Of a DNA stretch of 64,000 nt, positions 1 to 40,820 are shown piece by piece; position 1 is the stretch's first letter, and each line of letters starts with the position of its first letter. The DNA comes from Bifidobacterium sp. 7101 (GTDB lineage Bacteria; Actinomycetota; Actinomycetes; Actinomycetales; Bifidobacteriaceae): NCBI RefSeq assembly GCF_000499285.1, contig NZ_AWUN01000007.1:62001-126000 (forward strand), in the 5' to 3' direction. A program made the translations under genes and the position numbers. The notes under the pieces were generated by a model. It did no database searches. It was given only the letters and a program-made list of their open reading frames with translations, and had not been told where the DNA came from.

Positions 1-1911
1 CATGTCCTCGAAGATGGCCCGATCCCAGGCAGGACCACGACCCGGCGTACCCCGGCCGTCGGCAGTCAGGACCAGGAAGCCCTGATCAGCCCACCACTGG
101 GACTCCCAGTAGTAGGACTGGTTGAAGACCACCTGCTGGGCACCTGGCCCGCCGTAAGGCTTGAGCAGGACGGGCAGGCTGTCGGCGCTGGCGTAGGGGC
201 TGGATTCTGACGGCCTGACGATGGCTGCGAACAGCTCGTGCTGACCCATGCGCACGAAGTCCACGTTGGGGGTGAACCCGGGATCGCTGCTGGTGTCGGC
301 CAGGACGGCACTCATAGCCCCCTGGCTATTGATATGACCAGCATCCACGGCCCGGCGATCAGGGCGATCCTGATGCTCCGGCCGCACAGACTCGCCAGTC
401 TGTCTAGCGTTGCTGTCGGGGCGGGCTTCACCCACCAGGCCCAGCCCTTCAGCGCCCAGGCGGTCCAGATCCCCGTCAGCCCCCAGGTAGCAGTGGCGCA
501 CCTGTCCCTGCGCCGAGGCCATGGTCCGGCCGCTGACCACGATGCCATGGCCGGCTCGCGAGGCGGTCCACACTCCAGGCAGACGGTTGAGCACATGGAT
601 GGAGCCGTCATAGCTCAGACGCATCAGGTCGAAGCTGCGGGGGTCGGTGGAGACCACCGCCAGCACATCGCGGTCCCCCACGGACAGCACCTGCCGAATC
701 TGGCAGCCAGCCGGGGAGAATACCCTCCCGTCCAAACGTAGCCGCGTGGTGTCGGCTTCAGTATCGATGAAGGTGTCCACCAACCCACCCTGGGGCCGGT
801 AGGCCGGCAACCCGGGCACCAGGTCGATCCACTGATCGTTGTCATGCGTCTGCAGCACCCTGGTGGCCACCTTGGGCGCCGCCTCGGGATCAAGCAGGGT
901 CATATTCTGTCCCGGCTCCAAGCCCTGACGGGTATCCGGCACCTGCACATCCAGGATCCTATCCTCGGTCTGCCGACGGTTCTGAACCAGCAGCAGGGGC
1001 CGATGCCCGTCCTGCCAACGGACCACAGCCAGGTACTCGAAGGCCTGATGGTCCCAGTCCACCTCGCCCACCCAGGGGTCGGCGTCATCCTGGCCCAGGA
1101 GGACCAGGCTCAGTCCGACGCGGGCGTTGGCGGTCAGAGCCTGGGGATACCGCCGGGCGCACGGCCCGACCTGGGGATTGGCCGGATCGCTGATGTACCA
1201 GATCGGCTCATCAGAGGAATCAGTGTGCTCGACCAGCAGCGCCTTGGAATCCGGCGACCACCAGAATCCCTGGTAGCGGTCCATCTCCTCGCCGGCCACG
1301 AACTCGGCCAGCCCCAGCCGCATTCGATCATCGGTGCCTGGGCGCAGGGCCAGGACAGCCCGTTCACGGTCCTGCTCGGCACCCTGCCCGATAGTGACCA
1401 CCATCAACCGGTCGCCAGTGGTATAGGCCACCATAGTGCCGTCCGGGCTGATGGCGGGATTGAGCACAGCAGAATCGCTATCTTCCAAGCTCAGAGCCCG
1501 CGTGGAGGCGGTGAGACCATCGGGGGCTATCAGCGAGAGCCAGAGCCGACCGCCCAAGGCAAAGACCACCCGATCCCCGGCAGCATCCACGCTGTAATCG
1601 ACAATGCCCTCGCCGCCCTCCCGCGAGCGCTCCCTGCGAGCCAGCTCGGCGGCCGGCACCCGTTCCTGGTCCGCATCCTCCAGCAGGGCCCTGGGGTCGG
1701 CCAGGAGCACCTCATGGTGGCGGCCATCCTGGCCAAAGGCAGACAGCCAGAGCCCGGTCACCAGGTCTTCAGGTCCGTCGGAGCGCAGGAATACGGCCCG
1801 TGAGCCATCCCCCACCGCCAGGGCCGACCGTGGCGCACCCAACGTAAACCGCAGGGTCCGGGCCTTGGCCCGCGGATATGCCTCCATCGCCCGATCCACC
1901 TCTTCGGCCAT
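1..1911 (-). CDS. S9 family peptidase (dipeptidyl-peptidase IV / prolyl oligopeptidase type), 3' end outside window
   Basis: The frame is open from an ATG at 1911 (GAGGAG about six bases upstream) to the left edge, giving 637 visible residues. The N-terminal part reads as the beta-propeller of S9B/S9C peptidases, with repeated blade motifs such as NPAISPDGTMVAYTT. The last visible residues carry DGRGTPGRG, the motif that precedes the alpha/beta-hydrolase core in DPP-IV-like enzymes. The catalytic Ser, Asp and His would lie beyond the edge, so activity cannot be judged. No signal peptide is visible, so a cytoplasmic enzyme that trims peptides, often at proline, is likely. Several long plus-strand frames in this stretch are shadows of the GC-rich codons. 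The gene is divergent from the LAKTG protein at 2251. Confidence 0.85.
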   Translation of the reverse strand, partial: MAEEVDRAMEAYPRAKARTLRFTLGAPRSALAVGDGSRAVFLRSDGPEDLVTGLWLSAFGQDGRHHEVLLADPRALLEDADQERVPAAELARRERSREGGEGIVDYSVDAAGDRVVFALGGRLWLSLIAPDGLTASTRALSLEDSDSAVLNPAISPDGTMVAYTTGDRLMVVTIGQGAEQDRERAVLALRPGTDDRMRLGLAEFVAGEEMDRYQGFWWSPDSKALLVEHTDSSDEPIWYISDPANPQVGPCARRYPQALTANARVGLSLVLLGQDDADPWVGEVDWDHQAFEYLAVVRWQDGHRPLLLVQNRRQTEDRILDVQVPDTRQGLEPGQNMTLLDPEAAPKVATRVLQTHDNDQWIDLVPGLPAYRPQGGLVDTFIDTEADTTRLRLDGRVFSPAGCQIRQVLSVGDRDVLAVVSTDPRSFDLMRLSYDGSIHVLNRLPGVWTASRAGHGIVVSGRTMASAQGQVRHCYLGADGDLDRLGAEGLGLVGEARPDSNARQTGESVRPEHQDRPDRRAVDAGHINSQGAMSAVLADTSSDPGFTPNVDFVRMGQHELFAAIVRPSESSPYASADSLPVLLKPYGGPGAQQVVFNQSYYWESQWWADQGFLVLTADGRGTPGRGPAWDRAIFEDM

Positions 1912-2250
1912 GCTCGCTCCTCGACTATCTCTGACATGATCCCCATGATCATGCGTCTGCCACGATGATAAGCGCCCAGGTGCCAAAGGGGAATTCCAAT
2001 AGCTCAACTGCGAGGCGCCACCCTGCCTTCAGCAGACGTTAATCGTTCTACATGAGAAACTTTTATCTTCAAATAAGACATATTTTCGAACCACGACCAG
2101 CCGATGACCATTCCGTGCGCTAGAATTGTAGCGTGTTGTCGCCAAAGATTGGTCGATGATGCCTGTTTCCCAGGGGTAGGAGTGTCAAGGCAGGACACCC
2201 CATGAATGTATCTGGGGAGCAACCGACAATAGAGAAAATAGAGGTAACCA
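1912..2250. other. Intergenic region between divergent genes
   Basis: These 339 bases separate the S9 peptidase and the surface protein and must hold both promoters. It is more AT-rich than its surroundings. A TAGAAT hexamer at 2121-2126 could be a -10 element for the rightward gene, but no good -35 stands at the right distance. A small inverted repeat, GTGTC-7-GACAC, lies near 2188-2200 in the putative leader. No gene is supported here. Confidence 0.4.
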
Positions 2251-3129
2251 ATGAATATCATGGTTCGTTTCAAACGCGCATGCGCAGTACTCGCTGCCGG
2301 CGCCACCCTGGCTGGCGGCTTAGCACTGCTGCCCACCGTGGCCCAGGCTGTGGAGAGCAAGAATGTCCAGACCAAGGCCGCTAGCTACAAAATCACATTC
2401 CACGACCCCTATGGTCCTCGGGGGGATAAGGGGCAGGAGAAGACAACCACTCTGAACACCGACGACAGCGGCAAGCTGGATCCCAGCACGATTCCAGAGC
2501 CTATAGTGCCCGATCAGAATACGAAAGCTGATGGCTGGTCTATCAATGGATCTGGTGGCCCAGCTGATGACCCAAATTCACAAAAAATCGACTTCAACAC
2601 CCATGTTTTCACCCAAGACGAGGATCTCTATCCTAACTTCGCCCAGATAAACCCCATCACTTACAACATCACTTTCGTCACTATGAATCCGGAAGATATC
2701 GAAGAATCCACCGCGGACGTGATGCAAACCAATAGTGAGGGAAAGCTATCTGAGGAACCCACGGTTCACAACTTCGATGGTTACACCTTCGACGGTTGGT
2801 TTAACGAAAATGGCGGGTCCCGTTACGTCCCCGGTGGCACCTACAACGCAGACACTACTTTCATGGCCAAGTACACCAAGGTGACCACTCCCAACGAGCC
2901 TAACAAGCCTGGTCAGACCGCTCCGGTTGACAACAACACCAAGCAGCCTGCCAAGGACAACAACAAGGCTCCAGCCAAGGATCCGGCTAAGAAGGACGCC
3001 AAGAACAACAAGAACAACAACAATCTGGCCAAGACCGGCGCCGACGCCACGGCTCCTCTGGCCATCGCCGCTGGCCTCTGCCTGGCTGCCGGCATCACCC
3101 TGGGTCTGCGTCGCAAGCTGGCTCTGTGA
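2251..3129 (+). CDS. Small cell-wall-anchored protein with two InlB/Flg_new-type repeats and a LAKTG sorting signal
   Basis: A 292-residue protein beginning with a clear Sec signal peptide (residues 1-34, basic start, Ala/Leu core, AQA cleavage site). Two repeats follow, about residues 42-130 and 132-210, each starting Y-x-I-T-F and ending with D-G-W and a K/A-x-Y/F strand; this is the Listeria-Bacteroides (InlB B) repeat pattern. A Pro/Asn/Lys-rich wall-spanning linker (about 211-258) leads to LAKTG at 259-263, a hydrophobic segment and a basic tail. LAxTG is the motif favoured by class E sortases, and one is encoded at 12756-13871. The start is supported by AGAGG seven bases upstream. The function, adhesion or wall structure, is not shown by the sequence. 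Confidence 0.85.
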   Translation: MNIMVRFKRACAVLAAGATLAGGLALLPTVAQAVESKNVQTKAASYKITFHDPYGPRGDKGQEKTTTLNTDDSGKLDPSTIPEPIVPDQNTKADGWSINGSGGPADDPNSQKIDFNTHVFTQDEDLYPNFAQINPITYNITFVTMNPEDIEESTADVMQTNSEGKLSEEPTVHNFDGYTFDGWFNENGGSRYVPGGTYNADTTFMAKYTKVTTPNEPNKPGQTAPVDNNTKQPAKDNNKAPAKDPAKKDAKNNKNNNNLAKTGADATAPLAIAAGLCLAAGITLGLRRKLAL

Positions 3130-3169
3130 GTCCGCAGGCTTCGGCCTGACCTATGATGATTGAAGTTCA

Positions 3170-3202
3170 AAGGCCCCTGGTCCATTGTGGCCATGGGGCC
3201 TT
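3170..3202 (+). terminator. Probable terminator or hairpin after the LAKTG protein gene
   Basis: AAGGCCCC at 3170-3177 pairs with GGGGCCTT at 3195-3202, extended by TGG/CCA inside. There is only a short T tract, so termination would rest mainly on the stem. Confidence 0.55.
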
Positions 3203-3327
3203 ATCCATACCCGGCAGTCGCGGTCGTTCGAACCTGTTCATTGAAGAAATTGCAAGCATCCGACCGCCCATTACCCCCTTCCGGCAGGGTCACGTACTAT
3301 GAAAGGGTTATATGGAAAGGGATGACT

Positions 3328-4032
3328 ATGAGCGTTCTCGATCGTTTCGAGAAGAGCGTGGAAGGCGCCGTTAACGGTGTCTTCTCGAAGTTCGGCTCCA
3401 AGGACCTACAGCCCGTCGACCTGTCGAGCGCCCTCGAGCGTGAGATAGACTCACAGGCCATGCCCGTCGGTCGCGACCGTACCGTGGCGCCCAACGAGTA
3501 TCGATTCAGACTATCCACCCCAGACTTCGACCGCATTGAGCAGTGGGGTTCGGAGGCTCTGGCCAACGAGCTGGCAGACAACCTGACCAAGTACGCCGAA
3601 AGCCAGCACTATGCCTTCGTCGGCCCGGTCGTGGTCATCTTCGAGGAGGACCTCAACCTGAACAAGGGCGACTTCCACCTGTCTGCCGAGTCGGTCCAGG
3701 GCAACGCGGCACCCGTGACCACACCCGAAGAGTCCAAGGACTGCCCGGTGTTGGAGATCAACGGTCGCCAGTACCTGCTGACCGCCCCCATCACCACCAT
3801 CGGCCGTGGATCCTCCTGTGACATCGTCATCGACGACGCAGGCATCTCCCGCCGACACCTGCAGATCGAGATCACCGACAAGGGCGTGGTAGCCCGCGAT
3901 CTGGGGTCCACCAACGGCACCTATGTAGAGGGGCATCAGGTACCCGCAGCCACCCTGCTGGACGGCAATACCATCACCATCGGCCGTACCCGCATCCTCT
4001 ACTGGGCATCGTCGCAGGAACAGGATTCGTAA
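3328..4032 (+). CDS. fhaA: FhaA: DUF3662 plus FHA domain protein
   Basis: A 234-residue protein. Residues 1 to about 115 match the DUF3662 domain of actinobacterial FhaA (starts MSVLDRFEKSVEGAV; acidic MxVGRDRTVAPNEYR stretch), and the C-terminal third is a forkhead-associated domain with GRGSSCDI, SRRHLQI and DLGSTNGT, the phosphothreonine-binding loops. In mycobacteria FhaA binds phosphorylated MviN/FtsW-type partners and tunes peptidoglycan synthesis; the same role is inferred here from synteny. The ATG at 3328 has GGAAAGGG 7-14 bases upstream; the ATG at 3322 is a possible alternative. It opens the cluster ending with pknB. Confidence 0.93.
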   Translation: MSVLDRFEKSVEGAVNGVFSKFGSKDLQPVDLSSALEREIDSQAMPVGRDRTVAPNEYRFRLSTPDFDRIEQWGSEALANELADNLTKYAESQHYAFVGPVVVIFEEDLNLNKGDFHLSAESVQGNAAPVTTPEESKDCPVLEINGRQYLLTAPITTIGRGSSCDIVIDDAGISRRHLQIEITDKGVVARDLGSTNGTYVEGHQVPAATLLDGNTITIGRTRILYWASSQEQDS

Positions 4033-4065
4033 GTCGCCCAGACCTTGAAGTAAGGTCGAATCATT

Positions 4066-4584
4066 ATGCTGACTGAACTGACATTCGCCATCCTCAAATA
4101 CGGATTCCTGGCTCTGTTATGGGTATTCGTATGGCTGGCCATCCGTTCACTCCGCAAAGACATCGAAACCTTCAGCCCCAAGACTTCTCATACCCGCCGA
4201 CGCAGTGAACGCGCAGCCCAGCGCAAGCTGCCGGCGGCCGCCAGATCCGTGCCTATCGCCCCGGTCAGCAAGACAGAGCCTGCAAGCGATGAACCCTCCC
4301 TGCTGGTGGTTATCGACGGACCTCTGGCCGGCTCCTCCACGCCGCTGTCCGGACGACCCATCACCCTGGGCCGCTCCTCCTCGAACACCCTGGTGCTGGA
4401 CGACGAGTTCGTCTCCGGCCATCATGCGCGGGTCTACCAGGATCCTGCATCGGGCCGATGGGCCATCGAGGATCTGGGGTCCACCAACGGCACCGTCGTC
4501 TCGGGACAGAAAATCACGGCGCCGACAATCCTACCGGCGGAGGTTCCCGTGCGCATCGGAGCCACCACCTTCGAGTTGAGGTAG
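4066..4584 (+). CDS. fhaB: FhaB (FipA-like): membrane-anchored FHA protein
   Basis: 172 residues: one N-terminal membrane segment (about 8-27), a short basic linker, and a C-terminal FHA domain (about 78-172) with LGRSSSNTLVL, SGHHARV and DLGSTNGT, so the phosphothreonine-binding residues are intact. In relatives this protein (FipA) is phosphorylated by PknB/PknA and bridges FtsZ and FtsQ during division under stress; that role is inferred. It lies 33 bp after fhaA and 6 bp before pstP, consistent with one transcript. Confidence 0.92.
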   Translation: MLTELTFAILKYGFLALLWVFVWLAIRSLRKDIETFSPKTSHTRRRSERAAQRKLPAAARSVPIAPVSKTEPASDEPSLLVVIDGPLAGSSTPLSGRPITLGRSSSNTLVLDDEFVSGHHARVYQDPASGRWAIEDLGSTNGTVVSGQKITAPTILPAEVPVRIGATTFELR

Positions 4585-4590
4585 CCGCCC

Positions 4591-6159
4591 ATGACCAGGA
4601 ACGATGCGAGCCAAAAGCTGTTCCTCTATTCCACGGCGGTTTCAGACGTGGGGTACGTGCGCAGCAACAACCAGGATTCCGCCTTCGCCGGTGAGCGCCT
4701 TGTGGCCATGTGCGACGGCATGGGCGGCCACGCAGGCGGGGATACGGCCTCGACCATAGCCATCCGATCCCTGGCCCACATCGAACGCGACGACCGGGAG
4801 CAGGACGTGCAGTCCCTGGCCCGGATGATGGAGACCTCGGTCATCGCGGCCCATGACGCCATCGTGGGCAAGGCCAAGCGCGAACATCGCCTGTCAGGCA
4901 TGGGCACCACGGTCACGGCCCTGGCTCTGGCCGACGACTCCTGGGTATTGGCCCATATCGGCGACTCCCGGGCCTACCTGCTGCGGGAGGGCAAGCTGAT
5001 CCGGATGACCCAGGACCACTCCTACGTGCAGCATCTGATCGACACCGGCCGCATCTCCCCGACCGAAGCCCGCAACCACCCTCAGCGCAACGTGGTCATG
5101 CGGGTCCTGGGGGACTTCGACATCGACCCCCGCCCGGACATCTCCATCTCCAAGGCCCTGCCCGCAGACCGCTGGATGATCTGCTCGGACGGCCTCTGCG
5201 GCGTTCTGGAGGACTCGACCATCGCCGAGGTGCTGTCCTCGGTCTCGGACCAGGCGGAGTGCGCCCAGCAACTGGTCACCTTCGCCCTGAAGGCCGGCAG
5301 CACCGACAACGTGACCGTGGTCATCGCCGATGCCACACTGGCCCTGGACGCCGATGCATTCGACCTGCCCCATCAGACCCCTCTGGTCGGCGGGGCGGCC
5401 AGCTCCAACCTGGAGGCCCTGGCCGACATCCTGGATGAGCCCGTAGCGGCCGCACCGCGCCTGCGCGACGAGTCCCGGGAGTCCCCCGCCAAGCGGGCCG
5501 CCGACCTGACACAGGACCGGGATGCCGACAAACAGGAGGACGAGGATGGCGAAGGCCGCACCGCCCAACCCTCGGCTGCCCGCGAGGAGAGCGGCGAACG
5601 GCATGTGCCCGATACCAGCGAAATCCCCATCGTTCACAAGAAGGACGGCTCGGACTCAGCCGACCCCTACGACCCGGACGTGGCCGACGCCATCCACAAG
5701 GAGCACCTGGAGCAGCGCAAGCGCCAGCGCTCACGGCACCGGCGGATTCGGCTGATTCTGGCCGGCATCATCACCCTGGTGATCCTGGTCCTGGCCGGAG
5801 GCACGGCGGCTGCCTACCACTGGAGCCAGGAACAGTACTACCTGGGCACGGACCAGGGCCGAGTGGCCATCTACCAGGGCGTGCCCACCAAGGCCTTCGC
5901 CCTCTCGCTGTCCCACCCGGTGCAGACCACGGACATCGCCGTCAAGGGACTGCCCCAGTCCTGGCGTGACCAGTTGGAAGAGGGCATCACCGTCTCCAGC
6001 ATGGACGACGCCAAGGAGCATGCCCGTCTGATCCGCAAGGAGGCCGGCGACCTCAAACGCGAGCAAACCAAGGAGGCCAAGGACGAGTCCGACCAGGCAT
6101 CGACTTCTCCCTCAGCCTCGCCCTCACCGTCGGAAACCGACCAGAGCGGGCGGCAATAG
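4591..6159 (+). CDS. pstP: PstP: PP2C-family Ser/Thr protein phosphatase with one membrane segment
   Basis: 522 residues. The PP2C domain (about 10-255) shows SNNQD, the metal-binding CDGMGGHAGGD (Asp42, Asp51), GMGTT, HIGDSRAY, QDHSY, SDGL and TDNVTVV. A long acidic, Ala/Glu/Asp-rich linker (about 285-370) leads to one membrane helix near 385-408 and an extracellular tail rich in Ser and Pro. The enzyme would remove phosphates from PknA/PknB and their targets. It lies between fhaB and rodA with spacings of 6 bp and 2 bp. The extracytoplasmic tail (about 110 residues) has no domain I recognise. Confidence 0.93.
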   Translation: MTRNDASQKLFLYSTAVSDVGYVRSNNQDSAFAGERLVAMCDGMGGHAGGDTASTIAIRSLAHIERDDREQDVQSLARMMETSVIAAHDAIVGKAKREHRLSGMGTTVTALALADDSWVLAHIGDSRAYLLREGKLIRMTQDHSYVQHLIDTGRISPTEARNHPQRNVVMRVLGDFDIDPRPDISISKALPADRWMICSDGLCGVLEDSTIAEVLSSVSDQAECAQQLVTFALKAGSTDNVTVVIADATLALDADAFDLPHQTPLVGGAASSNLEALADILDEPVAAAPRLRDESRESPAKRAADLTQDRDADKQEDEDGEGRTAQPSAAREESGERHVPDTSEIPIVHKKDGSDSADPYDPDVADAIHKEHLEQRKRQRSRHRRIRLILAGIITLVILVLAGGTAAAYHWSQEQYYLGTDQGRVAIYQGVPTKAFALSLSHPVQTTDIAVKGLPQSWRDQLEEGITVSSMDDAKEHARLIRKEAGDLKREQTKEAKDESDQASTSPSASPSPSETDQSGRQ

Positions 6160-6161
6160 TC

Positions 6162-7703
6162 ATGATCATCACCCGTCTGCGCCGCATAGGCCTTCTGCTC
6201 TTCTCCCTGCTGGTGGGATTCATCGGCTTCTTCCAGATGTTCGCCCGTGCGGCGGGCCGCTTCCCCGGGGATTACGCCGCCCTGCTGGTAGTCACCGCCG
6301 CCCTCTTCATCGCCCTCTGGGTCCTGTTGGAGATTTTCCAGCCCTATGGCAGCCAGGCCATCCTGCCCAGCATCGTCATCCTGAGTTCCCTGGGCATCAC
6401 CCTGATCACTCGCATAGATCTGCGCAACGCCCGGATCGGCCAGCCCACACGGGTGGGCTTCACCCAGCTGATCTGGCTGTGTCTGGCCCTGGTCCTGTGT
6501 GGGCTGCTGGTGGTGCTGCTCCGGGACTACAGGCTGCTGCGTCGCTTCTCCTATGTGAGCATGGTGGTGGGTCTGGTCCTGCTCCTGTCGCCCATGCTGC
6601 CCGGCATCGGCCGCGAAATCGGCGGCGCCCGCATCTGGATAGGCGTGGGGTCGCACACCCTGCAGCCCGGCGAATTCGCCAAGCTCTTCCTGGCCTTCTT
6701 CTTCGCCGCCTACCTGTTCGACCACCGGGACCAGCTGGCCGTGGGCGGCAAGAAGTTCCTGGGCATGCGGATGCCCCGGATCAAGGACTTTGGCCCCATT
6801 ATCATCGTCTGGCTTATTTCGCTGGCCGTCCTGGTCATCCAGCACGATCTGGGCACCTCGCTGATGTACTTCGCCATGTTCGTCTCCATGCTCTATGTGG
6901 CCACCGGCCGCACCAGCTGGATCGCCATAGGTTCGGTCTTCTTCGTCATCGGAGCCGTGGCCGCATCCATGATCTTCGCCCATGTGGGCGCCCGTGTGGA
7001 CGCCTGGCTGCACCCCTTCAGCGACGCTGAGTTCGGCAAGGCCTTCGGCGGGTCCGGCCAGCTGGTGCGCGGCATCTTCGGCCTGGCCGCCGGCGGGCTG
7101 ACAGGCACCGGCCTGGGCCAGGGACGCCCCTGGATCACCCCCCTGGCCAACTCCGACTTCATCTACACGTCGGTGGGTGAGGAGCTGGGGCTGAGCGGTC
7201 TGCTGGTGGTTCTGGCCCTCTACCTGGTCATCGTGGCCTCGGGCATGATCACGGCCATGAAGATCAAGGACGGTTTCGGCAAGCTCCTGGCCTCCGGTCT
7301 GGTCTTCACCATGGCCTTCCAGGTCTTCACCGTGGTGGGCGGCATCACCCTGGTCATCCCCCTGACCGGCCTGACCATGCCCTACATGGCGGCGGGCGGC
7401 TCCAGCCTGGTGGCCAACTGCATCCTGGCCGTCCTGCTCATCATCATCTCCAACGCGGCCAACAAGCCAGCACCGGAGGTCAGCTCGGACACCTTCAAGT
7501 ACGAGGCCCTGGCCGTGCTGCGTCAGCAGGAGACCAGCAAGCGCAGCGGACAGGACGACTCGGACTCCGACTCAGGCTCTGACGACCAGGAATCCCACGG
7601 TCGTCATGCCGGGCCGACCGAGCCGACCGACCAGGATGAGGAGACCGACCTGCCAGCCACCGGCCGCATCCCCGCCCGCCAGGTACGAGGAGGTGGACAG
7701 TGA
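6162..7703 (+). CDS. rodA: RodA/FtsW-family SEDS peptidoglycan polymerase
   Basis: 513 residues with about ten membrane helices, GxARxWIGVG and LQPGEFAK motifs in the middle, and the SEDS signature NSDFIYTSVGEELG plus LTGLTMPYMAAGGSS near the end. The enzyme joins lipid II into glycan strands and works with a class B PBP; the partner, pbpA, follows with a GTGA overlap. The C-terminal 55 residues are a hydrophilic Asp/Ser-rich tail ending RQVRGGGQ. Actinobacterial clusters call this gene rodA, although the sequence alone does not separate RodA from FtsW. Confidence 0.92.
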   Translation: MIITRLRRIGLLLFSLLVGFIGFFQMFARAAGRFPGDYAALLVVTAALFIALWVLLEIFQPYGSQAILPSIVILSSLGITLITRIDLRNARIGQPTRVGFTQLIWLCLALVLCGLLVVLLRDYRLLRRFSYVSMVVGLVLLLSPMLPGIGREIGGARIWIGVGSHTLQPGEFAKLFLAFFFAAYLFDHRDQLAVGGKKFLGMRMPRIKDFGPIIIVWLISLAVLVIQHDLGTSLMYFAMFVSMLYVATGRTSWIAIGSVFFVIGAVAASMIFAHVGARVDAWLHPFSDAEFGKAFGGSGQLVRGIFGLAAGGLTGTGLGQGRPWITPLANSDFIYTSVGEELGLSGLLVVLALYLVIVASGMITAMKIKDGFGKLLASGLVFTMAFQVFTVVGGITLVIPLTGLTMPYMAAGGSSLVANCILAVLLIIISNAANKPAPEVSSDTFKYEALAVLRQQETSKRSGQDDSDSDSGSDDQESHGRHAGPTEPTDQDEETDLPATGRIPARQVRGGGQ

Positions 7704-9163
7704 ACAAGGCCCTGCGTCAACTCTTCAATGCCGTCATCGTCCTCTTCGTCATCCTGGGGCTTTCCAGCTCCATCATCATGGTGATCCGGGCGGGCAGCCT
7801 TAACTCGGACCCCCGCAATCTGCGTGCCCTCTACCACGAGTACGCGGCACCCAGAGGGGCCATCCTGACCTCGGACGGCGCCGTCATGGCCCAGTCCGAC
7901 CCCATCAACGACTCCTTCCAGTACCAGCGGCACTACCACAAGGGTGCCGTCTACTCGCCCATCACCGGCTACTACTCCATCACCAGCCCGGCGGACCGGG
8001 GAATCGAGGCCTCGCGCGACCGCCTGCTGAGCGGCCAATCGGACAGCCTGTGGATGGACCGGCTCAAGTCCCTCTTCACCGGCACCCAGAACAAGGGCGC
8101 CTCCATCGAGACCTCCATCAATCCCAAGATGCAGGAGGCCGCCTACGCCATGCTGGGCAACTTGTCCGGTTCGGTGGTGGCCATCGAGCCCTCTACAGGC
8201 CGCATCCTGACCATGGTCAGCACGCCGAGCTACAACCCCGAAGACCTGACCGCCCACGACAGCGGCGACGCCTCCCAGGCCTACCAGAAGCTGGCCTCCC
8301 GTTCCGACAACCCCATGCTCAACCGGGCCACCTCGCAGCTGTATCCGCCCGGGTCCACCTTCAAGGTGGTTGTGGCCGCCGCCGCCCTGGAGTCCGGCCA
8401 GTATCACCCCGACAGCCAACTGCCGGCCGGGGCCTCATACACCCTGCCCGGCACCAACTACAATCTGACCAACTCCACTTCAGCTGCCAACGGGTCCAAC
8501 GGCAAGATCAGCCTGGAGAACGCCCTGGCCTACTCATCCAACACGGCCTTCTCCCAGCTGGGGGTCGCCTTGGGCGACAAGACGCTGGCAGCACAGGCCC
8601 GCAAGTTCGGCTACGGCTCCACCATCACCCTGGACGGGACCAACTCCACAGGACGGCCCATGAAGGCCGTGGCCTCCAAGTTCCCCGAGGACCAGTCCCA
8701 GGACCGGCTGGCCCTGGCCTCCATCGGCCAGGGGGACACCCTGTCCACACCGCTACAGGCTGCCATGACGGCCGCTGCCGTGGCCAACGGCGGCAAGCTC
8801 ATGCAGCCGACCCTGGTGGACCGGGTACGCTCCAGCGACCTGAGCGTCATCAGTGAGACAACGCCCTCGGTCTACTCACAGGCCTTCTCATCGGACACCG
8901 CCAAGGCCCTGACCACCATGATGGAGGCAGTGACCACCAAGAGCTATCCGAATCTGGCCATCCCCGGCATGCAGGTGGCCGCCAAGTCCGGCACGGCTCA
9001 GATCGGTGCGGGCAATACGGCAAATGACGGGTGGATGATAGGATTCGCTCCGGCCGACAAACCCAAGGTAGCCGTAGCCGTTGTGGTGCATGGAATCTCC
9101 TCCTACGGCATAGATGCCGCCGGGCCGATCATGAAACGCGTCATGCAGGAGGCTGCCAAGTGA
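7700..9163 (+). CDS. pbpA: PbpA: class B penicillin-binding protein (transpeptidase)
   Basis: 487 residues from a GTG that overlaps the rodA stop by four bases. One N-terminal membrane anchor (about 8-31) is followed by a dimerisation region starting RGAILTSDG. The transpeptidase domain has all three active-site motifs: S219-TFK, S279-SN and K429-SGT. It crosslinks peptidoglycan on the outer face of the membrane as partner of the SEDS protein upstream. The length and motif spacing match mycobacterial PbpA. The stop overlaps the pknA start (GTGA), so translation of the two is probably coupled. Confidence 0.94.
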   Translation: MNKALRQLFNAVIVLFVILGLSSSIIMVIRAGSLNSDPRNLRALYHEYAAPRGAILTSDGAVMAQSDPINDSFQYQRHYHKGAVYSPITGYYSITSPADRGIEASRDRLLSGQSDSLWMDRLKSLFTGTQNKGASIETSINPKMQEAAYAMLGNLSGSVVAIEPSTGRILTMVSTPSYNPEDLTAHDSGDASQAYQKLASRSDNPMLNRATSQLYPPGSTFKVVVAAAALESGQYHPDSQLPAGASYTLPGTNYNLTNSTSAANGSNGKISLENALAYSSNTAFSQLGVALGDKTLAAQARKFGYGSTITLDGTNSTGRPMKAVASKFPEDQSQDRLALASIGQGDTLSTPLQAAMTAAAVANGGKLMQPTLVDRVRSSDLSVISETTPSVYSQAFSSDTAKALTTMMEAVTTKSYPNLAIPGMQVAAKSGTAQIGAGNTANDGWMIGFAPADKPKVAVAVVVHGISSYGIDAAGPIMKRVMQEAAK

Positions 9164-10152
9164 AACTGATACAAGGACAGCTCATTCATCGACGGTACCG
9201 TCTGGACCGCCGCCTGGCCCAGGGGGGCATGGGCGAAGTCTGGAAGGGCTACGACATAGAACTGGGCCGCGTGGTGGCCATCAAGGCCCTGCGCGAGGAT
9301 CTGACCAACGAGGAGTCCAAGCTGCTGCGGCTGCGGGCCGAGGCGCACAATTCCGCCAACCTGGCCCACCCCAACATCGCCGCCCTCTTCGAGTACTACG
9401 AGCACGACGGCATCGGCTTCCTGATCATGGAGTACGTCCCCAGCCAATCCCTGGCAGACATCTACCGGGACCGGGGTGCCCTGGACCCCATCGAGCTGCT
9501 GCCCATCCTGATACAGACGGCCCGGGGGCTCTACGTGGCACACTCGCACGGGGTCATCCACCGGGACGTCAAGCCGGCCAACATCATGGTCTCCGACACC
9601 GGTGAGGTCAAGATCACGGATTTCGGCGTCTCATACTCCACCAACCAGGGGCAGATCACCCAGGACGGCATGGTGGTGGGCACGGCCCAGTACATCTCTC
9701 CCGAGCAGGCCCAGGGCCTCCAGGCCACGCCCCAGTCCGACATCTACTCCCTGGGTGTGGTGGCCTATGAGGGACTCTGCGGGCACCGACCTTTCACTGG
9801 CGCCACCCCGGTGGACATCGCCGCAGCACACGTCAACGACCCTGTGCCACCGCTGCCTAACTCGGTGGACAACCAACTCATGAACTTCGTCATGTCCATG
9901 CTGGCCAAGGACCCGCGAGACCGCCCGGCGAATGCCTTGGTGGTCTCGCACACACTGGCCAGGATCGAGCAACGGCTGCTGGACCAGCAGCTGGGCGAGA
10001 CGGAGGTCATCGACCCGCGCGCACCCATGCCTAGACGCATTATGAGCAGGCCACACGCGGCAAAAGACATCTTCAGGCCCTTCTGGGGGCACTATGGAGA
10101 AGGAAGCGCACAGCGCGGCCTTGAAGCGACGAACGGAGGGGATACCCTATGA
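9160..10152 (+). CDS. pknA: PknA-like Ser/Thr protein kinase without a membrane segment
   Basis: 330 residues from the GTG at 9160, which overlaps the pbpA stop. Hanks-type motifs are present: glycine loop GGMGEVW, Lys42 in VAIK, HRDVKPAN with Asp136, DFG at 154-156, then GTAQYISPEQ. The kinase domain ends near residue 275. The remaining ~55 residues are basic and Pro/Arg-rich with no membrane helix, so unlike mycobacterial PknA this kinase appears soluble or held by partners. An upstream in-frame ATG at 9031 lies inside pbpA and is unlikely. It overlaps pknB by four bases (ATGA). Confidence 0.9.
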   Translation: MKLIQGQLIHRRYRLDRRLAQGGMGEVWKGYDIELGRVVAIKALREDLTNEESKLLRLRAEAHNSANLAHPNIAALFEYYEHDGIGFLIMEYVPSQSLADIYRDRGALDPIELLPILIQTARGLYVAHSHGVIHRDVKPANIMVSDTGEVKITDFGVSYSTNQGQITQDGMVVGTAQYISPEQAQGLQATPQSDIYSLGVVAYEGLCGHRPFTGATPVDIAAAHVNDPVPPLPNSVDNQLMNFVMSMLAKDPRDRPANALVVSHTLARIEQRLLDQQLGETEVIDPRAPMPRRIMSRPHAAKDIFRPFWGHYGEGSAQRGLEATNGGDTL

Positions 10153-14714: not shown

Positions 14715-15134
14715 ATGGCAGAGCATCAACTCCATGATGACGAGGACCAGGCGGTGGACAGGAGCAAGACCGCCGACACTGGCGAGGATGCCGAGGACGA
14801 GGAGTACGGCCTGTCCATGGACAAGGTGGAGGCAGTGCTCAACCAGAGCGTTGACAAAAAGCACATGACACCGCAGATGCGCCGCATCGTGCAGCGTCAG
14901 GAAGAGAACACCCGCCGCGTGGAGGACACCATCAAGAACACCAAGGCTAATCCGCGCTGGTTTGTGCCCCTCTTCGTCACGCTGATGCTGGTGGGCCTGA
15001 TCTGGATCGTGGTTTACTACATCTCCTCCACCATGGGCAAAGTCTTCCCCATCCCTGGCATCGGCAACTGGAACTTGGCAGTGGGCTTTGGCATTCTGTT
15101 GGTCGGCTTCCTCATGACCATGTGGTGGCACTGA
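14715..15134 (+). CDS. crgA: CrgA: septation inhibitor / divisome membrane protein
   Basis: 139 residues; the first 75 are hydrophilic and very acidic, longer than in mycobacterial CrgA (about 93 residues), and the C-terminal half is the CrgA domain with NPRWFVPLF, a helix near 83-103, IPGIGNWN, and a second helix ending MTMWWH. CrgA binds FtsQ, FtsI and other division proteins and helps place septal synthesis. The start is set by AAGGAGAA at 14699-14706. A much longer upstream frame is only the shadow of the DUF881 gene. Confidence 0.92.
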   Translation: MAEHQLHDDEDQAVDRSKTADTGEDAEDEEYGLSMDKVEAVLNQSVDKKHMTPQMRRIVQRQEENTRRVEDTIKNTKANPRWFVPLFVTLMLVGLIWIVVYYISSTMGKVFPIPGIGNWNLAVGFGILLVGFLMTMWWH

Positions 15135-15154: not shown

Positions 15155-15194
15155 AGAACCCCGCAACCGCGCAGGCACGGCTGTGGGGTTCTTT
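15155..15194 (+). terminator. Terminator after crgA
   Basis: AGAACCCC at 15155-15162 pairs with GGGGTTCT at 15185-15192; a short T run follows. Confidence 0.75.
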
Positions 15195-15527
15195 GCATAT
15201 CCGTCCACACCCTTACGTCAGGCATGTGGGGATTCATCCACTGTTTCGAGACTCGAGCCAAAGTTATCCACAATCGCCCGGATTCCACGTGGATGACCTA
15301 ATGCACTCATCCACAACCCTACTGCTGATTGGGTTCTTCCTTCACTTATCCACTTTTTACTGGTATATATGCACCAGTTCTGAATACTTATTCCCAGGTT
15401 ATCCACACGATTGTCAACAAATGTGGATAGATGACATCCATGTCATTTATCAATTACCAGACCCGAACCGGGGACGAAATAGTTCGCAATCGACAGCAGG
15501 CGGTCAGCAACAGGTAGACGCTGATTT
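15195..15527. other. DnaA-box cluster: candidate replication origin or DnaA-binding locus
   Basis: This space lies between converging genes (crgA rightward, rhomboid leftward), so it needs no promoter, yet it is AT-rich and full of DnaA boxes. Perfect TTATCCACA: 15264-15272 and 15399-15407. One mismatch: TCATCCACA 15307-15315, TTATCCACT 15346-15354, CTATCCACA on the minus strand at 15422-15430. TTGTCAACA at 15411-15419 is one off the actinobacterial form TTGTCCACA. Weaker boxes: 15234-15242 and, minus, 15288-15296. An AT-rich stretch at about 15350-15395 could be an unwinding element. dnaA and dnaN are not in the window, so oriC versus a DnaA-titration site is undecided. Confidence 0.7.
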
Positions 15528-16289
15528 TCAGCGCATGGGGTTGAACATGTTGCAGCCCAGAGCCAGCAGGACCAGGGCCGCCAGGAAGATCAACGTGGGT
15601 AGCAGCCAGGAGAGCAGACCATGCACCCGCGAGCCGGGCCGGCCCATGTGCAACAGGGCCAGCATGAAGAGGCCGCCGACTATGAACCCACCAACGTGGT
15701 CCTGCCAGGCAATGCCGGGCACGAACAGGGGCATACAGAAGTTGATGCCCATCCAGACCACCAAGGAAAGGATGTCAATCCCCAGACGGCGGTAGACCAC
15801 CAGAATGGCTGCGAAGAGCCCGAAGAGCGCGCCCGAGGCCCCTATGGCCGACGTGCCCCAGCCATTGGGCGCCAGGACCGCATAGACCATCAGCCCCAGG
15901 TCTCCGCCCAGCCCGCTGATCATGTAGAGGGCCAGGAAACGTCCATGCCCTATCAGATTTTCCAGGACCGGCCCCACAACCCAGAGGGTGATCATGTTGA
16001 AGAGGATGTGCGAGACATTGGTGGCGTGCAGAAATATGTTGGTCACAAACATCCAGGGCTCATGAATGGCCGTAATCGGCACGAAGGCCCAGTAGCCAAG
16101 CAAAAGCCGTTGATAACGAAGTGGGGCCAGCAGGTACAGGGCCATCTGGATGACCCAGGCCACTATGCAGATCAGAGTGATGGCTATGGTCACCACCGGA
16201 GCATGGTCACCCCAGTACCGCCGGATCCATCCCAGCGGCCCCCGACCATTTCCTCCGCCTGTGAAACTGGTGCCCGTGCCATTGACCAT
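15528..16289 (-). CDS. Rhomboid-family intramembrane serine protease
   Basis: 253 residues from the ATG at 16289, which has AAGGTAAGG just upstream; a GTG at 16361 would add 24 residues and is less likely. About seven membrane helices. The rhomboid signature is complete: HATNVSHILFNM (His/Asn oxyanion region), GASGALFG with the catalytic Ser, and the catalytic His in WQDHVGGF. It cuts membrane proteins inside the bilayer; its substrate is unknown. It converges on crgA across the DnaA-box region. Confidence 0.9.
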   Translation of the reverse strand: MVNGTGTSFTGGGNGRGPLGWIRRYWGDHAPVVTIAITLICIVAWVIQMALYLLAPLRYQRLLLGYWAFVPITAIHEPWMFVTNIFLHATNVSHILFNMITLWVVGPVLENLIGHGRFLALYMISGLGGDLGLMVYAVLAPNGWGTSAIGASGALFGLFAAILVVYRRLGIDILSLVVWMGINFCMPLFVPGIAWQDHVGGFIVGGLFMLALLHMGRPGSRVHGLLSWLLPTLIFLAALVLLALGCNMFNPMR

Positions 16290-16442
16290 GAACCTTACCT
16301 TACCTGACCGTCCGGCCGGGGTGTGCGGTTTCCGTGCCGCAATGGCACCGATGCGCCCCACAGTTCGCCGCTTTCTACTAGGATGATGACTAGGTCGGTC
16401 GAAGTGGGCAGGACCGACGAAAGTCGTCGAAAGGAGCCAAAC

Positions 16443-35467: not shown

Positions 35468-36235
35468 TCAGCTGCGGCGGTAGAGCTTGGTGTAGGAGCC
35501 CTCGGCCCGGGGACGGACCACAATCTGGTCGATGTCCACAGTGTCGGGCTGCTCCAGGGCCCAGGTGACGCATCCGGCGATGTCGTCGGCGGTCAGGGGG
35601 TCGGGCACCCCGGCATAGACCGCATCGGCCCGGTCGCTGTCCCCGCCGAACCGCTTCAGGGAGAACTCGTCGGTGTGGACCAGACCCGGAGCGATGTCGA
35701 CCACGCGCACCGGCTGGCCAATCAGCTCCAGCCGCAGAATGCGGGCCATGACCCGTTCCGCCGCCTTGGAAGCGCAGTATCCGCCGCCGCCCTCGTAGGG
35801 CTCGATGCCTGCCGTCGAAGAGATGACCAGGACCGTGCCCTCCGACTCTTTCAGGGCCGGGAGCAGCTTCTGTATGACCCTCAGGGTGCCGATAACGTTC
35901 AGCTCGTACATGCCGCGCCAGTCCTCCAGGCTGGAGGTAGCCACCGGGTCCTTGCCGAAGGCCGCGCCGGCGCAGTTGACCAGAGCCTTGACCGGCCCGC
36001 CCTTGAGCACGGCATCGACGGCCGCCTGAGTGGAGTCCTCGTCGGTCACATCGCAGACCTCATAGGTGAAGTTCTGACCCAGCTGGTCAGCCAAAGCCTT
36101 GAGATTGTCCTCGCGCCGGGCCAGGCCAACCACCTTCCAGCCCTTGTCCACCAAGGCCCGCGCACTGGCCTGCCCGATGCCACTGGAGGCGCCGGTCACC
36201 ACAGCACGCTTGATTGTCTTCTTGGATTCCGTCAT
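35468..36235 (-). CDS. Short-chain dehydrogenase/reductase (YdfG-like)
   Basis: 255 residues, classical SDR. NADP-binding TGASSGIG near 15-22 with Arg-Arg after strand 2, NCAGAA, catalytic Ser in ISSTAG and YCASK (Tyr and Lys). The remainder fits the NADP-dependent 3-hydroxy acid dehydrogenase group (YdfG), but the substrate is a guess. AAGGAG eight bases before the ATG. It is the last GC-rich gene before the restriction-modification island. Confidence 0.88.
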   Translation of the reverse strand: MTESKKTIKRAVVTGASSGIGQASARALVDKGWKVVGLARREDNLKALADQLGQNFTYEVCDVTDEDSTQAAVDAVLKGGPVKALVNCAGAAFGKDPVATSSLEDWRGMYELNVIGTLRVIQKLLPALKESEGTVLVISSTAGIEPYEGGGGYCASKAAERVMARILRLELIGQPVRVVDIAPGLVHTDEFSLKRFGGDSDRADAVYAGVPDPLTADDIAGCVTWALEQPDTVDIDQIVVRPRAEGSYTKLYRRS

Positions 36236-36354
36236 TTCAACTGCTCCTTATGCTCATATTTAGTTTTGCCTTAACGCGATTGAATATGTGCATATGAAAG
36301 TGAATACTTATAGTCTATTGGCCTATCAACCGCCAATCGGGAGAGGTGAGAAAT

Positions 36355-38223
36355 TTATTGTTTATCGAGCGACACTGTATCGTCAGATAAATAATAAAAA
36401 TCTTTTGATTTTGGCAACTTTATATTTGGAATCCATACAGGGTTTCCGTCCCAACCTTGCTCTTTCTTCCCGTCTACTTGATACATGGTTAGCACAAATT
36501 GGGTTGCATACTGATTGGTAGCCTTCCAGTCATTTTCAGAAAGCAATGCGCCTGAGTTCTTCGTAATGTTGCGATGCCTTCTCACTAAGAGCATGCCCTG
36601 CGTTAAAGGATTTTCGTTTTGAGCAGATTCAAGCATTTTCGCATAAGCGTCGATATTCATATCATCTGCCGAAACATGTTTGAGTATTTCAATCATCAAC
36701 TTTAGATTGATAGGTGTTGGAGGTTCAGAGCCGCTGTAATCAGTTAACAAATCACAGATATCTTTATAAGAATTATTCCGCGGAGAAGATGGGAACCGAT
36801 TAGCGCCGCCGGGAATAATATTAAGTAAGGACATATCTAAAACTCCTTTTCTTGTAGGACTCAATCCTTCGGGATAAGAAATAACGGCGTTATGATTACT
36901 TGTGATCTGAGCAATAATTGAATTATTGGTCTCGTTAATCTCGGAAAAGAGTTTATACAATTCGTGGCTTATGAACATAGAAATAAGCCCGGGATCTCGA
37001 TCATATCCAAACATTCTAGAATGTTGCCACATAGTGTCAGCTTGTGGTCTTTTACTTGTTCTCGTATAGTAAAAGGTGTTAAGCTGGTCAAACGTTACTC
37101 CGCGGCCAAGAGATAGGCCTCCGACTATAAAATTACAACCCGAAGCATATTCATCACTGCCATCAGACGACCTACCATTTAAGGTCACAATGTTGTACTC
37201 CTGATTTTCCAGCATTTCTTTGACTTTAGCTAGTATATCGCCCATTGACCTTTTCGGTGTTTTGACAGGGTGAATGCTGTCATATTCCTTAGCTACAGCA
37301 CGTTCAAGATCTCCACCGTGATTCCATGTCCACCATGCAAGACCCTTTTCTATCTCTCTTTTGTATTCTTTATGGGCAATTTGTTTTACTCCCGGATGCA
37401 CCAAACAATTAGATACTTGATCTCCAGAAAGAAGAACCTGAGCAGACACAACCAAGTGTCTGATCACCACCCTCTTTGCTACTTCAATTGGATCTTCATT
37501 ATCCACAAAGTTGACAAAGGACGGTGTGTTATAAGGGGGAAAGAAGAAATCACCACCCAGATAACCTTCACCGGGTTTAAAGTAATAAGTAAACTCAGGC
37601 TTTGACCCAGAAGATTCTGACTGCAGGAACAATGCCTGTGGAGTTCCTGTGACTTGCAAGTAAATGGAGGAAGAGGCATCATTTTTAATGTCCGAGAGAG
37701 TCCCATTAATCGAGGATACGTCATCTTCATTCACTTTAGTATTCAATGAGGCAGCATCGCTCTCGTCATCGATGATAAATAATGGGTTACCTCTCAACCT
37801 ATTCGAATTCTTTAGTATATTGCGCCAGTTTTGCAACACTCTTACATTCTTTTTTAGGACGACAAGCACTGGGCGGTCCCTACATTTTTTAAATTTTTCC
37901 TCTTCGGATTCATCACATACCACGAATCCGGGCAGATCCCTAACTGCTCTTTCATAAGTTTGCTGTTGCAATAATTTATTATCCGTTGTGACTAATAGGA
38001 AATACGGAAATCCTTTATCGGCGGCGGCAGCAGCTACTCCAAACATTTGGCTGGTCTTTCCAGACTGAATGTTCCCAAATAGAAGTATGACTAAATTAGA
38101 GCGATAATCAAATTTGTCAAAATAATTATCAACAAACCTGTTAGCTGTATCAGTTACAGATTGTGCCAGCGCGCCCTTTCCTTGCTCCACATATTGCCTT
38201 GTGTATTCATCCAGATATTTCAT
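36355..38223 (-). CDS. Z1-domain ATPase of the restriction-modification island
   Basis: 622 residues. Walker A-like GNIQSGKT at 50-57, a Walker B-like FIIDDESD near 148, and the Z1 core with IVGGLSLGRGVTFDQL and WQHSRMFGYDR. Z1 proteins are superfamily-2-like ATPases found next to methyltransferases and nucleases of type II and type IIS-like systems, where they may act as a helicase or translocase. Base composition is far more AT-rich than the chromosome around it. AAGGGG precedes the ATG; the endonuclease gene ends 9 bp upstream, so both share a transcript. Confidence 0.85.
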   Translation of the reverse strand: MKYLDEYTRQYVEQGKGALAQSVTDTANRFVDNYFDKFDYRSNLVILLFGNIQSGKTSQMFGVAAAAADKGFPYFLLVTTDNKLLQQQTYERAVRDLPGFVVCDESEEEKFKKCRDRPVLVVLKKNVRVLQNWRNILKNSNRLRGNPLFIIDDESDAASLNTKVNEDDVSSINGTLSDIKNDASSSIYLQVTGTPQALFLQSESSGSKPEFTYYFKPGEGYLGGDFFFPPYNTPSFVNFVDNEDPIEVAKRVVIRHLVVSAQVLLSGDQVSNCLVHPGVKQIAHKEYKREIEKGLAWWTWNHGGDLERAVAKEYDSIHPVKTPKRSMGDILAKVKEMLENQEYNIVTLNGRSSDGSDEYASGCNFIVGGLSLGRGVTFDQLNTFYYTRTSKRPQADTMWQHSRMFGYDRDPGLISMFISHELYKLFSEINETNNSIIAQITSNHNAVISYPEGLSPTRKGVLDMSLLNIIPGGANRFPSSPRNNSYKDICDLLTDYSGSEPPTPINLKLMIEILKHVSADDMNIDAYAKMLESAQNENPLTQGMLLVRRHRNITKNSGALLSENDWKATNQYATQFVLTMYQVDGKKEQGWDGNPVWIPNIKLPKSKDFYYLSDDTVSLDKQ

Positions 38224-38232
38224 CTATTCCCC

Positions 38233-39459: not shown

Positions 39460-39566
39460 ATTGACCTCACTCAGCTAGAGACATACTCATTCGCTTTTAT
39501 CATATTAAGCATAAAAGAACAGCGATCCACAAAAACATGAGGGATAGAATCAACTTCTAGGTTTAG

Positions 39567-39580
39567 GCATATGCATATGC
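39567..39580. promoter_or_regulatory. 14-bp palindrome in the divergent R/M promoter region
   Basis: GCATATGCATATGC is self-complementary and sits midway between the endonuclease start and the methyltransferase start. No controller gene is present, so a site bound by the methyltransferase or a host regulator is possible. Confidence 0.4.
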
Positions 39581-39625
39581 TTAACCAAGGTAGTTAAGTC
39601 TCCTCGATTTGAAAGGTAACCACCG

Positions 39626-40768: not shown

Positions 40769-40820
40769 TCCTCAGCCGTCATAGAAGAAATGGACGTAGG
40801 TAAGGCAGTCACCATATGAG

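What the first reader, a model, noticed from the sequence alone, without database searches (positions are those of the whole stretch)
15225..15430. Dense DnaA-box cluster between converging genes: candidate oriC or DnaA-binding locus
Two perfect TTATCCACA boxes and four within one mismatch of TTATCCACA or TTGTCCACA lie inside 167 bp, in both orientations, with an AT-rich stretch among them. The genes on both sides converge and end in or near this space, so promoters do not explain it. In other actinobacteria crgA and the pknAB cluster lie near the origin. That dnaA is not adjacent makes it unusual: either the origin is detached from dnaA here, or this is a titration or secondary site.
Basis: partly seen in the sequence, partly recalled or inferred. 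Interest (0 to 1): 0.8.

Follow-up and report, generated by a model that had tools for sequence, protein, structure and literature searches.

The report
Ancient DnaA control site beside crgA
Next to the cell-division gene crgA lies a compact docking site for DnaA, the protein that starts chromosome copying; it is not the copying origin, but a similar site sits beside crgA in most of the actinobacterial genomes sampled here, so it is probably an old control point for DnaA.

Summary
The boxes are real: two perfect TTATCCACA and four one-mismatch boxes lie within 167 bp between convergent crgA and rhomboid genes. The site is not oriC. dnaA lies on another contig with six perfect boxes around it. 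In a closed relative the cumulative-skew minimum of 264 kb sampled is at the end of the 10-kb bin holding dnaA, about 80 kb from the cluster.

The site is an old, conserved element. In 59 evenly drawn class genomes (30 families, own genome included), 54 have at least one box (up to one mismatch) and 47 at least two within 250 bp downstream of crgA. Its core is rigid: two tandem boxes and one inverted, first to third 23 bp. Of 192 geometries, 13/10 bp occurs in 33 of 59 loci, 12/11 in 6, others in at most 3. The window has 12/11 (15399-15430).

Published work (PMC7738170) shows DnaA binding the corresponding crgA-side site in mycobacteria, where variants lengthen cells. Best reading: a non-origin DnaA control site, DARS-like in layout but with other spacing. 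Whether it reactivates, inactivates or sequesters DnaA is untested.

The parts
14715..15134 (+). crgA (septation regulator CrgA, 139 aa); the gene the site is linked to
   Evidence: PF06781 E 4.5e-27; ATG read
15156..15194 (+). GAACCCC...GGGGTTC inverted repeat followed by TTT: likely crgA terminator, separate from the boxes
   Evidence: seen in the sequence; the scan reports a terminator-like stem at 15170-15185 (1 found, 0.4 expected)
15264..15272 (+). DnaA box TTATCCACA (perfect)
   Evidence: 9 of 9 columns invariant in 12 loci
15307..15315 (+). DnaA box TCATCCACA (1 mismatch), poorly conserved
   Evidence: 1 of 9 columns invariant
15346..15354 (+). DnaA box TTATCCACT (1 mismatch)
   Evidence: 8 of 9 columns invariant
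15355..15398 (.). AT-rich stretch (36% GC) between boxes
15388..15396 (+). weak DnaA box TTATTCCCA (2 mismatches)
   Evidence: 7 of 9 columns invariant
15399..15430 (+). three-box core: A> 12 bp B> 11 bp C< (A to C start-to-start 23 bp)
15399..15407 (+). core box A TTATCCACA (perfect)
   Evidence: 9 of 9 invariant
15411..15419 (+). core box B TTGTCAACA (1 mismatch)
   Evidence: 8 of 9 invariant
15422..15430 (-). core box C CTATCCACA (1 mismatch), head-to-head with B
   Evidence: 9 of 9 invariant
15431..15446 (.). dyad ATGACAT-CC-ATGTCAT directly after the core; possible partner-protein site (inference)
   Evidence: alignment A1
15528..16361 (-). convergent rhomboid-family gene
   Evidence: PF01694 E 4.7e-23

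Best explanation
The cluster is a non-origin DnaA control site, conserved in actinobacteria and linked to crgA. Its working core is a rigid three-box module: two tandem DnaA boxes and a third that meets the second head to head. Several DnaA molecules assemble on it and the assembly changes DnaA's activity, and so the cell size or timing at which oriC fires. Shown here: the boxes, their class-wide linkage to crgA, the rigid geometry, and that it is not oriC. Shown in print for mycobacteria (PMC7738170): DnaA binds the corresponding intergenic site in vitro (M. tuberculosis DnaA) and in cells (M. smegmatis), and variants in a palindrome of two box-like sequences lengthen cells as dnaA variants do. 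Inferred: homology of the mycobacterial and bifidobacterial sites (same place beside crgA; no named mycobacterial genome was read here), and DnaA binding in Bifidobacterium. Inferred and least certain: the assembly promotes DnaA activity (DARS-like ADP release) rather than only withdrawing DnaA. I lean to promotion because the palindrome variants give longer cells, like dnaA variants that the authors compare to hypomorphs. My split on the sign: promotion about 0.4, sink or datA-like inactivation about 0.35. The confidence below is for the statement as a whole; the sink rival shares its first part.
For: Even sample of 59 class genomes, own genome included: at least one box with up to one mismatch within 250 bp of the crgA stop in 54, at least two in 47, perfect TTRTCCACA in 34; background 0.0075 perfect and 0.24 one-mismatch sites per kb over 133 kb of the same loci. 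In the 70-locus set the reversed motif hits 0 loci and shuffled motifs at most 4, against 48 for the real motif. Geometry: 13/10 in 33 and 12/11 in 6 of 59 loci (38 together, 20 of 30 families), every other of 192 geometries at most 3. A strict triad pattern hits 25 of 393 genomes, once each, with 0 for the reversed pattern; 24 of the 25 hits are beside crgA, but 22 of the 25 genomes are of one family (f12). The boxes stay with crgA although the next gene differs: a convergent gene of the window's rhomboid BLAST cluster in 65 of 129 loci, a co-oriented small gene in 21 of 129, all in families f12/f43 (bPH_6 in the one member tested). In 51 Bifidobacteriaceae loci, 42 have one dense cluster starting 13-3319 bp after crgA and no other 400-bp window in any of these loci scores above 3. 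Box columns are 51 of 63 invariant against 38 of 212 non-box columns. Published binding and phenotype: PMC7738170, sections 7, 9 and 12 and passages.
Against: No binding data for Bifidobacterium were found. The triad is missing in 17 of 59 class loci, and 5 of 59 have no box; in family f30 all 3 loci of the even sample have none. Nine of 51 Bifidobacteriaceae loci lack a cluster, two of them cut by contig ends, so the site is dispensable in some lineages. E. coli DARS spacing (12/14) was found in 0 of 59. A mostly weaker triad with the same spacing also lies beside dnaA in 25 of 26 bifidobacterial dnaA loci, so the module may be a general DnaA assembly unit. The strict pattern does not match the window's own core. 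I saw no statement that the mycobacterial variants weaken binding. Position near dnaA (32 of 34 measured same-contig class pairs within 60 kb) suits a sink as well as a reactivator. In E. coli adding a base at a 3-bp tandem pair cuts DnaA binding (PMC11317965 passage), yet the commonest tandem gap here is 4 bp.
Confidence: 0.6

Rival explanations
1. A DnaA sink or datA-like site near the origin: duplicated soon after initiation, it withdraws or inactivates DnaA and prevents re-initiation.
For: Close to dnaA: median 23 kb in 34 class genomes and 80 kb in 18 of 27 genus genomes (same-contig pairs). Up to 20 boxes in 400 bp in some bifidobacteria. A review passage says DnaA-box clusters in B. subtilis and S. 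coelicolor analogous to datA repress untimely initiation (PMC5742627).
Against: A rigid head-to-head geometry is not needed for mere titration (inference). In mycobacteria palindrome variants lengthen cells like dnaA variants, whereas loss of a sink should raise free DnaA (PMC7738170; inference, and weakened binding is assumed).
Confidence: 0.35
2. A transcription-control site: DnaA bound here regulates crgA or the downstream gene, coupling replication to septation.
For: The boxes are linked to crgA in 54 of 59 class genomes; in families f12/f43 they precede a co-oriented gene.
Against: In at least 65 of 129 loci the next supported gene converges, so the space is 3'-to-3'. No sigma-70-like promoter was found in the window spacer, but only 0.6 were expected by chance, so this says little. 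The paper states that neither Rv0010c nor Rv0011c expression is altered in its dnaA mutants (PMC7738170).
Confidence: 0.12
3. The chromosomal origin (oriC) or a second active origin.
For: Box density, both orientations and an AT-rich stretch.
Against: dnaA has its own box clusters; the skew minimum of the sampled stretch is at dnaA and not at the cluster; skew is negative on both sides in the window.
Confidence: 0.03
4. A chance or composition-driven cluster, or a terminator hairpin that resembles boxes.
For: The spacer is AT-richer than its flanks, and facing boxes form an inverted repeat.
Against: 0 of 3000 composition-matched sequences reach six boxes; class-wide conservation; tandem boxes are not explained by a hairpin, and a separate terminator-like repeat lies at 15156-15194.
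Confidence: 0.01

Closest known systems
Rv0010c-Rv0011c DnaA interaction site of mycobacteria (PMC7738170)
   Same: DnaA boxes in the intergenic space beside crgA (that Rv0011c is crgA is recalled); a palindrome of two box-like sequences, which I take to be the head-to-head B/C pair of the triad (inference)
   Different: The two genes there are co-oriented (both 'c' genes) rather than convergent; [quoted passage not shown]
E. coli DARS1 and DARS2 core
   Same: Three boxes, one opposite to the other two, tandem pair 12 bp start-to-start (read from MG1655; description in PMC5742627)
   Different: The inverted box is 14 bp from its neighbour in DARS (26 bp in all) against 10 or 11 (23 bp in all) here; DARS geometry in 0 of 59 loci; DARS1 and DARS2 lie at uvrB and mutH
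E. coli datA and datA-like clusters (B. subtilis, S. coelicolor)
   Same: Non-origin DnaA-box cluster with influence on initiation
   Different: datA depends on an IHF site between its boxes (PMC4585315 and PMC5742627 passages); no such layout was tested here. The S. coelicolor cluster paper was not held, so whether it is this locus is unknown
oriC of Bifidobacterium (dnaA flanks)
   Same: A mostly weaker triad of the same spacing lies beside dnaA in 25 of 26 genus dnaA loci
   Different: Separate locus; skew minimum of the sampled stretch at dnaA

Membership tests
oriC | lies at the cumulative GC-skew minimum | tested here: not met
   In G018 the minimum of 264 kb sampled around dnaA is at the end of the 10-kb bin with dnaA; no minimum of that depth at 90.8 kb where the cluster lies. 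Whole chromosome not computed
oriC | adjacent to dnaA | tested here: not met
   dnaA at C2:499004, cluster on C7; 27-96 kb apart in the 18 of 27 genus genomes with both on one contig
oriC | supports autonomous replication | not testable with these tools
   needs a minichromosome assay
DARS | three boxes, one inverted relative to the other two | tested here: met
   window core 15399-15430; 38 of 59 class loci
DARS | same box spacing as DARS1 and DARS2 | tested here: not met
   12/14 in 0 of 59; 13/10 or 12/11 in 38 of 59
DARS | prefers ADP-DnaA and releases its ADP | not testable with these tools
   needs biochemistry
datA | IHF-dependent stimulation of DnaA-ATP hydrolysis | not testable with these tools
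   needs biochemistry
mycobacterial crgA-side DnaA site | box cluster in the intergenic space directly downstream of crgA | tested here: met
mycobacterial crgA-side DnaA site | head-to-head pair of boxes (palindrome) | tested here: met
   window boxes B and C, 2 bp apart
mycobacterial crgA-side DnaA site | bound by DnaA | not testable with these tools
   published for mycobacteria only (PMC7738170)
DnaA-regulated promoter | boxes over or upstream of a promoter | tested here: inconclusive
   both flanking genes end here; 0 promoter-like sites, but 0.6 expected by chance and only sigma-70-like promoters are scanned
datA-like Streptomyces cluster | same locus as the published S. coelicolor cluster | not tested
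   paper not held; two searches listed nothing on it

The most novel reading that the evidence does not exclude
Actinobacteria possess a phylum-wide DnaA-reactivating site, a counterpart of E. coli DARS with its own geometry (tandem pair plus head-to-head box, 23 bp from first to third), fixed beside crgA since early in the phylum; the isoniazid-tolerance variants at the mycobacterial site act by weakening this switch.
Probability: 0.3. Interest if true: 0.9.

Novelty: new variant of a known kind. Interest (0 to 1): 0.75.

Why it matters
How actinobacteria control DnaA activity is, to my knowledge, largely open. The mycobacterial paper found a DnaA site beside crgA that is repeatedly mutated in clinical strains and saw no obvious counterpart in other species. 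If the homology holds, that site belongs to a class-wide, perhaps phylum-wide element with fixed geometry. Its function can then be studied in harmless models such as Corynebacterium glutamicum, Streptomyces or Bifidobacterium, and the geometry predicts which spacings matter.

Tried and rejected
oriC: rejected by dnaA's own clusters and by skew. Chance, composition or terminator: rejected. Promoter control: weakened, not excluded (and the paper).

My first DARS2 core assignment (note entries 3 and 4: 12/17) was wrong. states that DARS1 and DARS2 share one spacing, and the output shows a matching site (12/14, third box read by eye at the same offset).

The idea that the Streptomyces cluster (recalled as D78/H24) is this locus could not be tested: paper not held, nothing on it among the rows listed.

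Triad as unique to crgA: rejected. A mostly weaker one lies beside dnaA in 25 of 26 bifidobacterial loci and in 4 of 30 class dnaA loci, and the one strict-pattern hit away from crgA (G405) lies 31 bp upstream of a dnaA frame.

The 70 loci were the 30 best-scoring and 40 that I picked from the listed places for diversity; 7 of the 70 have no box in 250 bp (L114, L115, L119, L129, L152, L154, L158). The even sample of 59 was made to remove that bias; the two sets overlap. In one search one same-contig genome (G047) was left out because its contig length was not shown, and four distances assume that a single contig is circular.

Full report
Observation. The spacer between crgA (14715-15134, +) and a rhomboid gene (15528-16361, -) holds two perfect TTATCCACA boxes and four with one mismatch in 167 bp. 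Against first-order Markov sequence made from the spacer itself, 0 of 3000 reach six. The boxes are under selection: in an alignment of the window and 11 relatives (Bifidobacterium asteroides, B. indicum and near species), 51 of 63 box columns are invariant (counting the weak box at 15388) against 38 of 212 non-box columns. One box (15307) is poorly conserved, with 1 of 9 columns invariant.

Not the origin. The window lies on contig C7 of a 16-contig draft and dnaA on C2. Six perfect boxes flank dnaA, two upstream and four after it. Of 24 perfect TTATCCACA in the genome (7 for the reversed pattern), only dnaA's two flanks and this spacer have two or more within 300 bp. With TTRTCCACA a small group upstream of a parA-like gene also counts; TTGTCCACA was not searched genome-wide. 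In single-contig relative G018, 264 kb around dnaA were read in 10-kb bins. Cumulative skew reaches its lowest value at the end of the bin 1-10000, which holds dnaA, and then rises, with one slightly negative bin at 70-80 kb. The crgA boxes lie at 90.8-90.9 kb among positive bins. In the window, skew is negative on both sides of the cluster, -0.082 and -0.054. In the own genome's 40 kb around dnaA the skew is weak and the minimum lies about 15 kb past dnaA. Whole-chromosome skew was not computed.

Conservation. CrgA was found in 389 of 393 class genomes. To avoid choosing good cases, I took an even draw of 59 class genomes (30 families, own genome included), all with CrgA, and read every crgA locus. 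Within 250 bp downstream of the stop, 54 of 59 have at least one box with up to one mismatch, 47 at least two and 34 a perfect TTRTCCACA; one locus was truncated. The five without any are L114 (f2), L255, L257 and L269 (all three f30 loci of the sample) and L285 (f31). Background in the same loci is 0.0075 perfect and 0.24 one-mismatch sites per kb (133 kb). In an overlapping, partly hand-picked set of 70 loci, density is 5.1 and 3.3 perfect boxes per kb in the first and second 100 bp, 0.2-0.7 from 200 to 600 bp, and 0-0.14 upstream of the stop and beyond 600 bp. There 48 loci have a perfect box within 250 bp, against 0 for the reversed motif and at most 4 for shuffled motifs.

Geometry. In the 70 loci box pairs are mostly tandem at 12-13 bp (50 of 97 tandem pairs) or convergent at 23 bp (35 of 89); divergent pairs are rarer (17). 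In the even sample, scanning 192 geometries for two tandem boxes plus one inverted within 300 bp, 13/10 occurs in 33 of 59 loci, 12/11 in 6, 12/12 in 3 and all others in at most 1; 38 loci in 20 of 30 families have 13/10 or 12/11. With looser box quality (up to 5 mismatches in all, 450 bp) 42 of 59 have the triad. Over 129 loci (window, 58 loci, 70 class loci) it is 68, against 18 in 1.33 Mb of control sequence from the same loci. A strict pattern drawn from family f12 loci hits 25 of 393 genomes once each (22 of them f12, four genera in all; not the own genome), with none for the reversed pattern. Of these 25 hits, 22 lie beside a listed crgA, two more beside a crgA found by HMM, and one lies just upstream of dnaA.

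Anchoring. The nearest supported gene downstream is a convergent one of the window's rhomboid BLAST cluster in 65 of 129 loci, and a small co-oriented gene in 21 of 129, all in families f12 and f43. By Pfam only one member of each was tested: rhomboid in the window, bPH_6 in L104. In 51 Bifidobacteriaceae loci, 42 have a dense cluster starting 13-3319 bp after crgA, in some beyond an inserted gene (for example L018, L030). Nine have none: L016 and L025 (cut by contig ends), L021, L024, L032-L035 and L053. In a phylum draw, CrgA was found in 69 of 149 genomes, 56 of them outside the class. In the 17 outside loci provided, the best-scoring ones, 13 have at least one box, 6 a perfect one and 6 a triad, two of these triads more than 350 bp away. 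That suggests phylum depth but is not an even sample.

Known binding. PMC7738170 (abstract, sections 7, 9 and 12 and passages read; [quoted passage not shown] Homologs of the same five were found by ChIP-seq in M. smegmatis. Nearly all recurrent clinical variant sites there fall in a palindrome of two box-like sequences, and three rebuilt variants lengthened cells and gave an advantage at the same isoniazid range as dnaA variants. dnaA variants showed no difference in initiation rate, and neither neighbouring gene's expression changed in them. [quoted passage not shown] That Rv0011c is crgA and that Rv0010c is a PH-domain gene are recalled; no named mycobacterial genome was read here. The bifidobacterial genome also has boxes upstream of dnaB and on both sides of dnaA, so four of the five mycobacterial regions have a box-bearing counterpart here; the fifth was not examined.

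Mechanism. The E. coli DARS core has three boxes, one opposite, and the head-to-head pair is called its prominent feature (PMC5742627 passages). From MG1655 both cores have 12/14 spacing. The actinobacterial module has the same topology but 13/10 or 12/11. So it may work like a DARS but is not filed as one. E. coli DnaA prefers tandem pairs 2-3 bp apart, and adding one base at a 3-bp pair cuts binding (PMC11317965 passages). The commonest tandem gap here is 4 bp, so either actinobacterial DnaA differs or the head-to-head pair dominates (inference). Longer cells at unchanged initiation rate resemble raised initiation mass, as after loss of a DARS (about 20% per site, PMC5835720 passage). This favours promotion over a sink, but weakened binding by the variants is an assumption. 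Closeness to dnaA (32 of 34 measured class pairs within 60 kb, two at about 130 kb) fits a sink too.

Literature limits. Ten searches were made in an open-licence library. Among the rows listed, which for the larger result sets were only the top 10-25, I saw no class-wide description of this site. Three later papers listed that mention both Rv0010c and dnaA (PMC12584712, PMC8613195, PMC9579286) were not opened. Most subscription papers are missing, including the Streptomyces cluster paper. Novelty is claimed only against that.

Checking.

Noticed in passing
G000 C2:491914-492079 (L061 about 6914-7079): Second small DnaA-box group (two perfect TTRTCCACA, two one-mismatch) just upstream of a parA-like gene followed by parB.
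   Followed up: partly
L288 2028-2078 (G000 C2, upstream of dnaB): A perfect and a one-mismatch DnaA box upstream of dnaB, matching a region reported as DnaA-bound in mycobacteria.
   Followed up: partly
window 15431-15446: Conserved dyad right after the core; in L012 the sequence differs but is still a dyad, as if symmetry rather than sequence were kept.
   Followed up: no
L037, L039, L019, L029: Some Bifidobacterium loci have 15-20 boxes in 400 bp at this place, while other Bifidobacterium species have none.
   Followed up: partly
L030:10540-11895: A gene with PG_1098 ferredoxin-like and THUMP-like domains stands between crgA and the box cluster; BLAST relatives of it occur after crgA in seven other loci.
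   Followed up: no
window 36001-41000: AT-rich island (41-47% GC per kb, most of the window being about 60%) with a perfect box at 37499; possibly acquired DNA.
   Followed up: no
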